The translations under genes were made by a program, and so were the position numbers. The notes beneath the pieces are model-generated. The model saw nothing but the letters and a program-made list of their open reading frames with translations. It had not been told where the DNA came from and ran no database searches. From Bacteroidetes bacterium HLUCCA01 (GTDB lineage: Bacteria; Bacteroidota; Rhodothermia; Balneolales; HLUCCA01): a stretch of 64,000 nucleotides of DNA. Each line of letters begins with the position of its first letter. Positions within the stretch are counted from its first letter, which is position 1. The stretch lies in contig LIHN01000005.1 of the NCBI GenBank assembly GCA_001314545.1, forward strand, positions 1 to 64,000. The letters are read 5' to 3'. Shown piece after piece: positions 1 through 3,771 of the stretch.

Positions 1-124
1 CAATGGCTTTGTACGGGGATGGCAGGAAGGTTTGATTATCCTTCCAACGTGCGCCGTTATGATGTAAGTCGTTCACGGCTACCTGGCGCTCGGTAACCGG
101 AAACATGAAGTCTTGAAGGTTCAT
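1..124 (-). CDS. Partial hypothetical protein (N-terminus only)
   Basis: Reading the minus strand from the ATG at 124 gives an open frame of 41 codons (starting MNLQDFMFPVTERQ) that runs off the left edge of the window. It is absent from the supplied ORF track because it is open-ended. I do not recognise the family. It lies in the AT-rich accessory end, transcribed away from the AbiE pair, so it is probably island cargo. No signal peptide or membrane segment is visible in this part. Confidence 0.45.
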   Translation of the reverse strand, partial: MNLQDFMFPVTERQVAVNDLHHNGARWKDNQTFLPSPYKAI

Positions 125-403
125 GGTATAAGAGATTTGGTGAGTATTAATGAGCAAGGCTCATTGTTCTTATACCAGAAACGGGGCGAGATTAGGGGAG
201 TGGCGAAGTGGGGAAAGTTGTAAGTCTTGTTGGAGGTTGGATGCTACTGTTTGTATTTTCTTGAAAAGACGACCGTTGCTCAGGTTATAATTTTCGCCAC
301 TTCGCCACTTTGGGGAGCTAGTGCGTGCCTCGATTGAGTTGGAATGTGCGGAAAGCAAATGATGATTATGTGATGAATAGAAATTGCTAATGTGGATAAA
401 AAC
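125..403. other. Intergenic gap, AT-rich, one inverted repeat
   Basis: This gap separates the divergent partial ORF and the AbiE operon. It holds a 12-bp inverted repeat, GTGGCGAAGTGG at 200-211 and CCACTTCGCCAC at 297-308, with an 85-nt spacer. The minus-strand 62-residue ORF across it (170-358) looks like a by-product. No other gene is supported. Confidence 0.4.
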
Positions 404-444: not shown

Positions 445-1062
445 ATGTACACTTCAAAAGAAATTATTCGGAAAGCACTTGGTGTCTTTGAAAATAGGGG
501 TGGAATTCTAAGAACGTCAGAAGCTCTATCAGCCGGTATACACCCCAGAACGCTATATAAACTCAGAGATGATGGTTATCTCACAAAATTAGACCGGGGC
601 CTTTATACACTGGCCGCAGATTTTACGCTTTCCAATCCAGATATTGCAATTGTTGCAGCCAGGGTTCCCAATGCAAAAATTTGTCTGCTATCGGCGCTCG
701 ACTTTCATGAAATGACCAAAGAGATTCCTCATAGAGTTCATATCGCCATCGCACGAACTCAAAGAAATCCAAAGATAGATTACCCACCTGTTGAGGTATA
801 TCGATTTACCGATGAAAGCTTTACCGAAGGTGTAGAAAAGCATGAAATTGACGGACAAACAATCCAGGTCTATAGTCCGGCCAAAACTATTGCAGACTGT
901 TTCAAATTCAGAAACAAGATTGGCAAACAAATTGCTCTTGAAGCGCTCCAAACGGGACTTTACCAGAAAAAAATAGCAGTAAAAGAAATTCTGAAATATG
1001 CTAAAATCTGCAGAGTTGAAAAGATTCTGAAGCCCTATCTGGAAGCAAGTGTAAATGGATAA
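445..1062 (+). CDS. abiEi: AbiEi-family antitoxin (type IV toxin-antitoxin)
   Basis: This 205-residue protein matches the AbiEi antitoxin architecture. A short winged-helix DNA-binding region occupies about residues 18-60 (GGILRTSEALSAGIHPRTLY, then a YLTKLDRGLYTL wing). It is followed by the typical C-terminal domain with HIAIAR and YSPAKTIADCFKFRNKIG. In this family the antitoxin does not bind the toxin directly; it counters it and represses the operon. The stop overlaps the start of the AbiEii gene by 8 nt, the usual bicistronic arrangement, and an inverted repeat sits just upstream. Such pairs act in phage abortive infection and in stabilising mobile elements. Identification is by family pattern and partner and is fairly secure. 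Confidence 0.88.
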   Translation: MYTSKEIIRKALGVFENRGGILRTSEALSAGIHPRTLYKLRDDGYLTKLDRGLYTLAADFTLSNPDIAIVAARVPNAKICLLSALDFHEMTKEIPHRVHIAIARTQRNPKIDYPPVEVYRFTDESFTEGVEKHEIDGQTIQVYSPAKTIADCFKFRNKIGKQIALEALQTGLYQKKIAVKEILKYAKICRVEKILKPYLEASVNG

Positions 1063-1969
1063 AGATAAAAAACGAAAAGCCGCATCCGTTCATCAAAAAC
1101 TTTTGAACAAAGCACGTGAATCAAACCGTCCGTTCAATGAACTTCTTCAGTATTACGCTATGGAGAGGTTTCTGTACAGAGTGAGCCGGTCTGAATATGT
1201 TGAACAATTCATACTGAAGGGAGCACTGCTGCTACGCATGTCAGGCATATCAGAAATACGTTCTACTCGTGATATTGATTTCCTGGGCACGAATGATTCA
1301 GGTATTGAAAAAATGAAAAGGGTAGTAGCGAATTGCTGTACTGTTCAGGTAGCAGAGGATGGTCTGGAATTTCATTCCAATGATATCGAAGCCGATGAAA
1401 TCAGAGAAAATAATGTGTATCAGGGCTATCGATTCAGGATAAGAGGAAATCTTGGTAATGCGAAGATCTATATTCAGATTGATATGGGTTTTGGTGACAT
1501 CGTCACACCAGATCCGATTTGGGTTGAGTTTCCGACCGTGTTGGATGAGGAAAATCCAATTATTCGAGCTTATACACTGGAAACGGCTATAGCTGAGAAG
1601 TATCAGGCTATGATCGACCTTGACCTTCTTAACAGTCGTATGAAAGATTTTTATGATATCTGGTTTTTGAGTAGTAACCTAAGTTTTGATGGTACTATAC
1701 TGCAAGAAGCGATAAAACAGACTTTTGACAGAAGAAAGACCGATGTCCCTACGGAGAAACCATTCGTCTTTAAAGAGCTTTTTTATGCAGATAAAAATAA
1801 AGTCACTCAATGGCGAGCCTTTATAAAGAAAATAGGCCAGGAAGATTTGCCATCCGACTTTCGAACTGTTATGGAGCGGTTGGATAAGTTTTTATGGTCA
1901 CCGACAGAGTGCTTGGTACGAGGAGAACACTTTGCGAGGGTATGGTTTCCGAATGAGGGATGGGAATAG
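1055..1969 (+). CDS. abiEii: AbiEii-family nucleotidyltransferase toxin (type IV TA)
   Basis: This 304-residue protein is the partner of the upstream AbiEi. The nucleotidyltransferase signature is visible: FILKGALLLRMSG at about residues 52-64 and RSTRDIDFLG at 69-78, carrying the acidic metal-binding pair. The later conserved Lys/Asp region lies near 185-210 (AEKYQAM, SRMKDFYDIW). Members of this DUF1814 family transfer nucleotides to acceptors; in characterised homologues the target is tRNA, which stops growth. Length fits the family at roughly 290-320. The start ATG overlaps the antitoxin stop (ATGGATAA), implying translational coupling. No truncation or frameshift is seen, so the pair looks functional. 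Confidence 0.9.
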   Translation: MDKDKKRKAASVHQKLLNKARESNRPFNELLQYYAMERFLYRVSRSEYVEQFILKGALLLRMSGISEIRSTRDIDFLGTNDSGIEKMKRVVANCCTVQVAEDGLEFHSNDIEADEIRENNVYQGYRFRIRGNLGNAKIYIQIDMGFGDIVTPDPIWVEFPTVLDEENPIIRAYTLETAIAEKYQAMIDLDLLNSRMKDFYDIWFLSSNLSFDGTILQEAIKQTFDRRKTDVPTEKPFVFKELFYADKNKVTQWRAFIKKIGQEDLPSDFRTVMERLDKFLWSPTECLVRGEHFARVWFPNEGWE

Positions 1970-2058
1970 TGAATTCCCGTTTTTTATTTATCTGGTAGTC
2001 GATTTGGTAGTCAGTATTTTTAAAATGCCCTTAATGAAGTATTTAAGCTTGATTTTCA

Positions 2059-2108
2059 TCTGACTACGGATCAGAAGGTATGGGGTTCGAATCCCTACGG
2101 GTGTACCA
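2059..2108 (+). other. tRNA-Arg(ACG) 3' half: attachment-site scar
   Basis: These 50 nt correspond to tRNA positions 27-76. The anticodon stem TCTGA/TCAGA pairs around loop CTACGGA, giving anticodon ACG. The T arm has loop TTCGAAT, and the 3' acceptor strand CGGGTGT is followed by A and an encoded CCA. The upstream bases (GATTTTCA) contain neither a D arm nor a matching 5' acceptor ACACCCG, so this is not a functional gene. A tRNA cut at the anticodon stem with its 3' end and terminator intact is the expected displaced half of a tyrosine-recombinase integration site. Confidence 0.8.
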
Positions 2109-2115
2109 GCAACAT

Positions 2116-2156
2116 AGCCCTGAATTGCCCAACAACGCGGTTCAGGGCTATTTTTT
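2116..2156 (+). terminator. Rho-independent terminator of the original tRNA-Arg
   Basis: AGCCCTGAA at 2116-2124 pairs perfectly with TTCAGGGCT at 2141-2149, followed by ATTTTTT. It begins 8 nt after the tRNA CCA end, as expected for the native tRNA terminator. The 16-nt loop is repeated almost unchanged in the second scar at 3083-3123. Confidence 0.75.
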
Positions 2157-2212
2157 GTGCAAGACCTGACTCTAATTGTCAGACTTGTACAGAACTGCGA
2201 ACTCCACCGTTT

Positions 2213-2512
2213 CTACTTTCTTTTTTCAGGGTTTTGCCTGGTTCCAAATACAGAAAGAATTTGAATTGAGTCCTCTGCAATCCGATAGTATAGTGTATTG
2301 TTTTGATCAACCACCGCTTTGCGAATCTTTCTACCTGTGTTAAAGGTGGGAAAAATATCTGGATGACGGGATATGATTTCAAGAGTCTTATCGACAGCAT
2401 TTGCGAATTGAATCAATTCACTCACTGTCCAGTTTTCTTCTAAATACTTTATCGTATCCGATAATTCAGACAACGCATGGTCTGTCCACAGGATTTTAAA
2501 GCCACTTGGCAT
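2213..2512 (-). CDS. RelE/ParE-family toxin
   Basis: This 99-residue basic protein has the RelE/ParE superfamily pattern. The N-terminal part is helical (WTDHALSELSDTIKYLEENW), then HPDIFPTF, and the C-terminal strands read RKAVVDQNNTLYYRIAEDSIQILSVFGTRQNP. Family members either cleave mRNA on the ribosome or poison gyrase; the sequence alone does not separate these. It is the downstream gene of a two-gene operon and overlaps the antitoxin by 17 nt. It lies between two tRNA-derived direct repeats, consistent with an addiction module kept by a mobile segment. Confidence 0.82.
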   Translation of the reverse strand: MPSGFKILWTDHALSELSDTIKYLEENWTVSELIQFANAVDKTLEIISRHPDIFPTFNTGRKIRKAVVDQNNTLYYRIAEDSIQILSVFGTRQNPEKRK

Positions 2513-2729
2513 ATATCTTTCTGACTTGATCGTGGTCTTTCAGCTTGCCGGCATCAGCATCATCAATTCCCTTATTGATGGACTCCTTTTCAGCAGCTGA
2601 TAAACGCTCCCAGTACGCTTCTTTTTCACTGTCCCGAATGGCCAGCAGTTTCTCAATGATAGTTGGGCTATCAATGGTTGAGAGCCATTGAATCAATTCA
2701 AGTTTTGTCGTTTGCAGGTTGTTTTCCAT
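2496..2729 (-). CDS. Antitoxin partner of the RelE/ParE toxin
   Basis: The supplied ORF starts at 2870, but the first 47 codons read unlike protein. Starting at the ATG at 2729 gives a 77-residue protein beginning MENNLQTTKLELIQW. It is acidic and helical and ends in a short conserved-looking tail (DDADAGKLKDHDQVRKIYAKWL), a pattern common in small antitoxins placed directly ahead of RelE/ParE toxins in Bacteroidota. The tail would wrap the toxin, and the gene order antitoxin then toxin with a 17-nt overlap supports the pairing. I see no clear ribbon-helix-helix. Confidence in the role comes mainly from context. Confidence 0.72.
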   Translation of the reverse strand: MENNLQTTKLELIQWLSTIDSPTIIEKLLAIRDSEKEAYWERLSAAEKESINKGIDDADAGKLKDHDQVRKIYAKWL

Positions 2730-3011
2730 GGTTAAAAACTTACGGGTCGTATAAGATTCTGTGGTCAATTCTTGCCCAACTTGTAATACAGGCAATAAAT
2801 GCATGCTCTTGATGACGTCATTGGCCTGTAGCAAATGCATATAAATATCATCGAAATAACGAATCCGCATTCTGCTATAACTTGCAAATAATCATCATCT
2901 ATAATCAAATTTGATCAATTCGTTTCAGATAAACAACTTAATTGCCGCTGAATGACGTCATTTATACTTCCAGGCAGCGACGATTAAAATTCACCTTGTT
3001 TGTTCAAACGC

Positions 3012-3123
3012 TTAAAATGCACCCTTAATGCCCATTTAATGGAGACGGTAATGCCAGGAATCCCTACGGGTGTACTTTACATAGCCATGAATTGCCCAAC
3101 AACGCGGTTCAGGGCTTTTTTTG
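3012..3123 (+). repeat. Degenerate second copy of the tRNA-Arg scar and terminator
   Basis: This copy matches the 2020-2156 region in pieces: TTAAAATGC, CCTTAATG and ATTTAA upstream, then AATCCCTACGGGTGTAC (17 nt exact), then ACATAGCC.TGAATTGCCC through TTCAGGGCT and a T run. The left blocks are 992 bp apart and the right blocks 967-969 bp apart, so about 25 nt of the anticodon and T-arm part has been lost here. The terminator stem carries a mismatch. It is an eroded attachment site or duplication. Confidence 0.72.
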
Positions 3124-3384
3124 TGCCGGATCACATCCCATGTACGTATTTACAGATTATTTCAAACGATGGGGGGTGTTGTGGGGTTATATTTAGTCAA
3201 CGCCGTTCAGATGCCTGCACGCAATCCGGCACCACGTTTCGCCGGCCGTAAACGCAGGCAACATAATCAGGAACCGGTGCTTCGACTCTAATACTGTCCC
3301 TAATTTAATGTTGGTCAATTCCAGCTCTATCCACTGTAGAGCCAGGTTTTGACGCTGCTACCCCTAATTTAACCCCTTAAAACC
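3124..3384. other. Intergenic gap without recognisable gene
   Basis: This region runs from the second tRNA scar to the first chromosomal-looking gene. The ORF 3000-3251 that crosses into it overlaps the repeat and reads as a by-product. I see no promoter or RNA gene with confidence. Confidence 0.4.
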
Positions 3385-3771
3385 ATGATGGTTAACGTTT
3401 CTCTCTTCTACAGTGTGATTTTTATTGCCATTGGCGTAGTTGCCTGGGCAGTGACCGGTATGGAACAGGCTACAGCCCTGATCCCGGCCTATTTTGGTGC
3501 GCTGGTACTTGTTTTTGCTGTGATTTCCCGACTTAAAGAAGGACTTCGACGCCACCTCATGCACGCAGCCATGGCTATTGTCCTGCTCGGTCTGCTGGGA
3601 TCGGTGGGCGGACTCTTCCGCTTTATCGGCTCGCTGTTCACCGGTGCTGAGCTGGCCCGACCAGCGGCTGTTTATGCACAGAGCGTCTTCGCTGTAGCCA
3701 GCATGGGCTATCTGTATGCCGGCATCCGTTCGTTTATTGACGCCCGCAAACAACGCGAAGCACAGGCCTGA
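3385..3771 (+). CDS. Small integral membrane protein, function unknown
   Basis: This 128-residue hydrophobic protein has about four transmembrane segments (near residues 5-27, 32-50, 60-82 and 95-117) and a basic cytoplasmic tail (IDARKQREAQA). A short positively charged loop, RLKEGLRRH, lies between helices 2 and 3. I recognise no catalytic motif or named family with certainty; similar short proteins are common and uncharacterised in the group. It stands alone between the island end and a convergent secreted-protein gene. Two adjacent start codons (ATGATG) are possible. Confidence 0.7.
   Translation: MMVNVSLFYSVIFIAIGVVAWAVTGMEQATALIPAYFGALVLVFAVISRLKEGLRRHLMHAAMAIVLLGLLGSVGGLFRFIGSLFTGAELARPAAVYAQSVFAVASMGYLYAGIRSFIDARKQREAQA

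What the first reader, a model, noticed from the sequence alone, without database searches (positions are those of the whole stretch)
2020..3123. Two tRNA-Arg(ACG) attachment-site scars 968 bp apart bracket a TA module
The 50-nt 3' half of a tRNA-Arg with its terminator lies at 2059-2156, and an eroded copy, including upstream non-tRNA blocks, lies at 3012-3123. The repeated left-hand blocks are not tRNA sequence. This implies that two related elements used the same integrase site, rather than one simple duplication of the chromosome.
Basis: partly seen in the sequence, partly recalled or inferred. Interest (0 to 1): 0.62.

Follow-up and report, generated by a model that had tools for sequence, protein, structure and literature searches.

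The report
Stacked tRNA-Arg island scars with toxin-antitoxin genes
The start of this window is the right-hand end of mobile DNA that entered one arginine tRNA gene, apparently at least twice, leaving two broken copies of the tRNA end and two toxin-antitoxin gene pairs behind; this is a well-known kind of event, here seen in a little-studied Balneola-like bacterium.

Summary
Window 2057-2156 is the 3' half of a tRNA-Arg plus terminator. Window 3058-3126 is a second, decayed copy, and a shared non-tRNA block lies before each. The intact gene is tRNA-Arg(TCG), not ACG, on another contig (C11:2883-2959). Beside it lie a degenerate tyrosine-integrase gene and TGGTAGTC arm repeats that recur beside the first scar. 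A sister species carries the same tRNA with no island, and its next genes are those found at window 3385 and 26461-54550. Everything left of about 3126 is therefore island, and the island spans the assembly gap. The DNA between the scars is 39% GC, below all 528 chromosomal windows sampled (minimum 44.7%). In the sister species a related element (same DUF932 end, 92.5% identical; intact integrase) sits in tRNA-Arg(ACG), with the same layout of arms, tRNA scar and terminator. Best reading: tandem accretion. An older element was reduced to a ParE-type toxin-antitoxin pair and its outer scar. A later, DUF932-type element carrying an AbiE pair then integrated at the restored tRNA. The number of events is inferred, not proven. 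Known kind of system; low to moderate interest.

The parts
1..124 (-). N-terminal 41 codons of a DUF932 gene, cut by the contig start; core gene of the later island
   Evidence: 95% identical to the sister species' DUF932 protein; a second copy starts contig C5; bases 1-184 are 98.4% identical to C5:1-184; window 3-349 is 92.5% identical to the sister element's end
445..1062 (+). AbiEi antitoxin/regulator (cargo of the later island, next to its right end)
   Evidence: Pfam AbiEi_4 2.8e-11; PADLOC AbiEi 1.2e-73
1055..1969 (+). AbiEii nucleotidyltransferase toxin, overlapping AbiEi by 8 bp
   Evidence: Pfam AbiEii 3.3e-44; PADLOC AbiEii 1.4e-92; PDB 9hlo AbiGII 6.9e-39
1993..2012 (+). Two TGGTAGTC direct repeats 12 bp apart, proposed integrase arm-type sites at attR
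   Evidence: The same octamer occurs twice between the intact tRNA and the integrase remnant on C11; the sister element has GTGTGGTCA with the same 12-bp spacing at both ends
2020..2036 (+). Non-tRNA block TTAAAATGCCCTTAATG of the element arm, repeated at 3012-3030
   Evidence: Local alignment exceeds 99.8-100% of dinucleotide shuffles
2057..2106 (+). Scar 1 (attR): 3' half of tRNA-Arg, TCG-type body with anticodon T->A and one further T->A change
2108..2157 (+). Intrinsic terminator of scar 1
   Evidence: Hairpin -26.1 kcal/mol, z -6.2
2213..2512 (-). ParE/RelE-superfamily toxin gene (99 aa)
   Evidence: Pfam ParE_toxin 8e-7; PDB ParE chains 4e-4 to 1e-3
2496..2729 (-). Probable cognate antitoxin, 77 aa from the ATG at 2729 (the mechanical ORF runs to 2870); overlaps the toxin gene
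   Evidence: Upstream and overlapping in the same operon; no family match in Pfam, NCBIfam, PADLOC or PHROGs; inferred from position
3012..3030 (+). Second copy of the non-tRNA arm block (TTAAAATGCACCCTTAATG)
3058..3126 (+). Scar 2 (older attR): last 18 nt of tRNA-Arg plus decayed terminator; right-hand end of foreign DNA
   Evidence: 65/72 aligned positions identical to scar 1; stem mismatch, -18.1 kcal/mol; GC rises from 39% to 55-60% just beyond it
3385..3771 (+). First chromosomal gene right of the island (128-aa membrane protein), not part of the element
   Evidence: 86% identical protein 1.8 kb after the unoccupied tRNA-Arg(TCG) in the sister species

Best explanation
The first 3.1 kb of the window is the right end of a composite genomic island at tRNA-Arg(TCG), built by tandem accretion. 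An earlier element inserted by tyrosine-integrase recombination between its attP, which carries a tRNA 3' part and terminator, and the tRNA gene. The gene was restored on the left and a displaced fragment was left on the right (scar 2, 3058-3126). A later element of the Balneola DUF932/YqaJ type then used the restored tRNA as attB. It displaced the earlier element together with a second tRNA fragment (scar 1, 2057-2156) and brought the AbiE pair. The earlier element has shrunk to a ParE-type toxin-antitoxin pair (2213-2729) and its outer scar. The later element's integrase is now a pseudogene, so the array is probably immobile by itself. Shown by sequence: the scars, the intact tRNA, the integrase remnant, matching arm repeats at both ends, the unoccupied site in a sister species, foreign composition up to scar 2, and an equivalent element in another tRNA-Arg of the sister species. 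Inferred: the number and order of integrations, that the TA pairs work and favoured retention, and the island's full length across the assembly gap.
For: Intact tRNA-Arg(TCG) with terminator at C11:2883-2959 and integrase pieces matching residues 1-54 and 163-208 of an intact relative. TGGTAGTC repeats beside both the tRNA and scar 1. In sister genome G002 the tRNA-Arg(TCG) is free and followed by orthologues of window 3385-3771 and 26461-54550 in order, while C11's other flank matches the other side of it. In G002 a related element lies in tRNA-Arg(ACG): an intact 376-395-aa integrase, GTGTGGTCA arms at both ends, a displaced tRNA fragment, and a DUF932 end 92.5% identical to window 3-349. 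The DNA between the scars is 39.2% GC, below all 528 chromosomal 850-bp windows sampled. The two scar regions match only over arm block, tRNA end and terminator, not over a 968-bp unit. Scar 2 is the more decayed copy.
Against: No integrase or left arm of the earlier element remains between the scars, so it fails the usual test for a tandem array (own integrase plus own tRNA fragment). Both scars share the same terminator loop, which a native terminator plus an element terminator need not do. The island crosses an assembly gap, and C11-C18 adjacency rests on synteny with one sister genome. The non-tRNA part of scar 2 beyond the 17-19-nt block is not alignable to scar 1 above chance.
Confidence: 0.72

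Rival explanations
1. Only one element integrated. Scar 2 is a partial duplication of the attR region, made by aberrant excision, replication slippage or a small rearrangement, with the TA pair trapped or inserted between the copies.
For: The two terminators have the same loop (CCCAACAA), unlike the terminator at the intact tRNA (GTTAAAA). No second integrase is present between the scars.
Against: The rest of the 968-bp unit is not repeated. The block before the tRNA fragment matches only in part and the two copies have diverged unequally. Homology confined to arm, core and terminator is what two related attR sites give.
Confidence: 0.17
2. The scar 2 element was unrelated to the later one: its integrase cut in the T-loop and not in the anticodon region, so its displaced fragment starts at GAATCCC by design and is not eroded.
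For: Scar 2's tRNA sequence starts in the T-loop, as does the displaced fragment of the 26-kb BREX island in this genome's tRNA-Arg(ACG). Anticodon- and T-loop-centred sites are both common in tRNA islands (PMC4383910).
Against: The shared TTAAAATG..CCCTTAATG block before both scars points to a related arm.
Confidence: 0.08
3. The scars are chance or convergent terminator-like sequence, with no integration.
For: Terminator hairpins recur widely (general knowledge); no tool result supports this reading.
Against: E 1e-20 to 1e-36 matches, tRNA 3' end included; unoccupied site in the sister species; composition break at scar 2.
Confidence: 0.01

Closest known systems
Tandem-accretion composite genomic islands at tRNA genes (ICESt1/CIME302; Klebsiella asn-tDNA islands, PMC4891358; Shewanella CGI48, PMC8978831)
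   Same: Elements are stacked at one attachment site and leave displaced fragments in a row; integrase at one end; in Shewanella GI21 a TA pair lies beside attR, as the AbiE pair does here
   Different: Here the older element keeps no integrase and under 1 kb; the host is a Balneola-like bacterium; nothing tested experimentally
tRNA-targeted islands catalogued in Islander (PMC4383910)
   Same: Intact tRNA gene at one end, displaced 3' fragment at the other, tyrosine integrase next to an end
   Different: The integrase is a pseudogene and the island is split over contigs, so an automatic caller would probably reject it
The G002 (JAFIEZ01, 'Bacteroidetes bacterium coassembly_bin.10') DUF932-YqaJ-RadC element in tRNA-Arg(ACG)
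   Same: Homologous DUF932 end, same kind of integrase N-terminus, same tRNA/terminator/arm layout with 12-bp arm spacing
   Different: Different tRNA-Arg gene, different arm sequence (GTGTGGTCA against TGGTAGTC), intact integrase, no AbiE pair between DUF932 and attR
CIME-type relics (att sites kept, integrase lost)
   Same: The segment 2157-3126 is att-flanked DNA with no integrase of its own
   Different: Mobilisation in trans not shown; one of its two att sites is decayed

Membership tests
tRNA-integrated genomic island (tyrosine integrase) | Intact tRNA gene at one end and displaced 3' fragment in the same orientation at the other | tested here: met
   tRNA-Arg(TCG) C11:2883-2959 and window 2057-2106; the two ends lie on different contigs, ordered by synteny
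tRNA-integrated genomic island (tyrosine integrase) | Tyrosine integrase gene beside an attachment site | tested here: met
   Met by a degenerate gene: pieces of residues 1-54 and 163-208 at C11:2460-2734; intact relative in G002 with Pfam Phage_integrase 9.5e-32
tRNA-integrated genomic island (tyrosine integrase) | Unoccupied site in a relative | tested here: met
   G002:C3 tRNA-Arg(TCG) followed by orthologues of the window's chromosomal genes
Tandem array of islands (accretion) | Each member has its own tRNA fragment | tested here: met
   Scar 1 and scar 2
Tandem array of islands (accretion) | Each member has its own integrase gene | tested here: not met
   No integrase between 2157 and 3011; only ParE-type TA genes, so the older member is at best a relic
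AbiE type IV toxin-antitoxin | AbiEi-AbiEii operon | tested here: met
ParDE/RelBE type II toxin-antitoxin | ParE/RelE-fold toxin with upstream small antitoxin gene | tested here: inconclusive
   Toxin matches ParE_toxin and ParE structures; antitoxin has no family match; activity not testable here

The most novel reading that the evidence does not exclude
The 0.97-kb att-TA-att segment is not decay but a minimal addiction cassette: a TA pair between two related attachment sites that persists at the tRNA and can be moved in trans by integrases of related elements, with TA pairs as a recurring right-end module of this Balneola element family.
Probability: 0.07. Interest if true: 0.4.

Novelty: new member of a known kind. 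Interest (0 to 1): 0.22.

Why it matters
It documents, in Balneolota, a family of DUF932/YqaJ integrative elements that target different tRNA-Arg genes with matching changes in their arm repeats. It also gives a case in which a toxin-antitoxin pair appears to be all that remains of an older island at the same site. This adds a data point to the idea that TA pairs outlast the element that brought them. It does not change the general picture.

Tried and rejected
ACG identity: rejected. The genome's tRNA-Arg(ACG) at C11:177575-177649 has a different 3' half and is occupied by another island. A native terminator to tell the first from the later insertion could not be settled: G002's free TCG site has an unrelated terminator and G001 has no tRNA-Arg(TCG) hit. 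Mapping the crossover to anticodon or T-loop from substitutions: too few changes to decide. Close homologues of the ParE toxin in the two same-genus genomes: none found in G001 or G002; homologues elsewhere in the order are at most 41% identical. The AbiEii homologue in G002 (C11:158210-158651) is broken and elsewhere. Plasmids hold only distant DUF932 relatives and viral contigs only distant YqaJ relatives. Contig C22 probably lies inside this island, because it begins inside a beta-helix surface-protein ORF like the one running off C11:1 and ends in a YqaJ fragment, but C5 is an alternative neighbour and reads would be needed.

Full report
What is in the sequence. The repeats are real. Window 2057-2156 matches 100 bp of the genome's own tRNA-Arg and its terminator at 92%, and window 3058-3126 is a second copy at 90%. 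No complete tRNA lies in the window. The two copies start 967-969 bp apart. Before the tRNA part of each lies a block that is not tRNA, TTAAAATG(CA)CCCTTAATG, which dinucleotide shuffles reach in 0 to 0.2% of cases. Between this block and the T-loop the two scars cannot be aligned above chance. The terminator hairpin is sound in scar 1 (-26.1 kcal/mol) and mismatched in scar 2 (-18.1), so scar 2 looks older.

The intact gene. The window starts at base 1 of contig C18. The genome's only intact matching tRNA is tRNA-Arg(TCG) at C11:2883-2959, itself 2.9 kb from a contig end and pointing towards that end. The scar's ACG is best read as a substitution in a dead fragment: the true tRNA-Arg(ACG), C11:177575-177649, has a quite different 3' half. 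Downstream of the intact tRNA come three TTGGTAG(T/C)C-type repeats and an integrase start (MATLRKRGDRYQV...) that is broken: only pieces matching residues 1-54 and 163-208 of an intact relative remain. TGGTAGTC also occurs twice, 12 bp apart, just before scar 1 (1993, 2005) and only four other times on either strand of the 64-kb window. These are best read as integrase arm sites, so the C11 end and scar 1 belong to one element (inference).

The unoccupied site. In the same-genus genome G002, tRNA-Arg(TCG) at C3:138903-138977 is followed after 1.8 kb by an 86% identical copy of the window's 3385-3771 protein. After it come orthologues of window 26461-54550 in the same order, while C11's far flank is collinear with the other side of the G002 tRNA. 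C11 and C18 therefore flank one tRNA, and the island fills the assembly gap. GC content is about 39-41% from 445 to 3011 and rises to 55-60% beyond scar 2. The 851 bp between the scars (39.2%) are below all 528 chromosomal 850-bp windows sampled (minimum 44.7%).

The element family. G002 holds a related element in its tRNA-Arg(ACG): tRNA, terminator, GTGTGGTCA repeats 12 bp apart, an intact integrase and a RadC gene at the C20 end; and on C7 a DUF932-YqaJ end, the same GTGTGGTCA repeats, and a displaced tRNA-Arg(ACG) fragment with terminator. Window 3-349 is 92.5% identical to the DUF932 end of that element. The AbiE operon (445-1969) sits between this end and the scar only in the window's genome. 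Relatives of the DUF932-YqaJ core, mostly with RadC, occur in several Balneola and Balneolaceae genomes. The first 184 bases of C18 recur at 98.4% at the start of contig C5, which probably explains why the assembly broke here.

How it most likely arose. An element with a related right arm entered tRNA-Arg(TCG) and left scar 2. The tRNA was restored by the element's own copy of the 3' end. A later DUF932-type element used that restored gene, leaving scar 1 and pushing the first element outwards. The first element lost everything except a ParE-type toxin gene and its probable antitoxin gene. This is tandem accretion as described for other tRNA islands (PMC4891358; PMC8978831). In the Shewanella case a TA pair also lies beside attR and was shown to stabilise the island, which makes retention by the TA pairs plausible here but unproven. 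The formal test of a tandem array, own integrase for each member (PMC4383910), is not met for the older member.

What remains open. Both scars have the same terminator loop, so either the older element carried a copy of the native terminator, or there was still another integration, or scar 2 is a partial duplicate of scar 1. Scar 2's tRNA part starts in the T-loop, as does the displaced fragment of the BREX island in tRNA-Arg(ACG) of the same genome, so a T-loop type integrase is also possible. The chain C11-C22-C18 is likely but rests on gene content.

Verdict. Observation confirmed, interpretation partly supported, tRNA identity corrected from ACG to TCG. A new example of a known kind of event.

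Noticed in passing
G000:C11:177575-203715 (L063, L100, L091): A second island, about 26 kb at 46% GC, in this genome's tRNA-Arg(ACG), complete on one contig: BREX genes (BrxA, BrxB, BrxC, PglX part, PglZ, BrxL), an integrase beside the displaced fragment, and the 29-bp arm sequence with two GGTACCAAC repeats identical at both ends.
   Followed up: partly
G000:C5:1-4000 (L087): A second copy of the DUF932 end followed by RadC, a SocA/Panacea-like gene and a Fic-like gene (read by eye, no family search done), and tandem TGTAACCCCA repeats; possibly the end of yet another element of the family.
   Followed up: no
L047:11908-12825: In G002 an ORF joins about 25 residues of a type I restriction HsdM start to the C-terminal part of glutaminyl-tRNA synthetase, apparently a deletion fusion beside its element.
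   Followed up: no
window 3872-26460: 22.6 kb with a 1492-aa secreted FG-GAP/T9SS-like protein at its left has almost no counterpart at the collinear place in G002, yet has chromosomal GC (55.4%).
   Followed up: no
L047:6097-7098: In G002 an AbiEi_2-family gene (Pfam 1.1e-24) lies just outside the tRNA-Arg(ACG) scar, again TA-like DNA next to an attachment scar.
   Followed up: no
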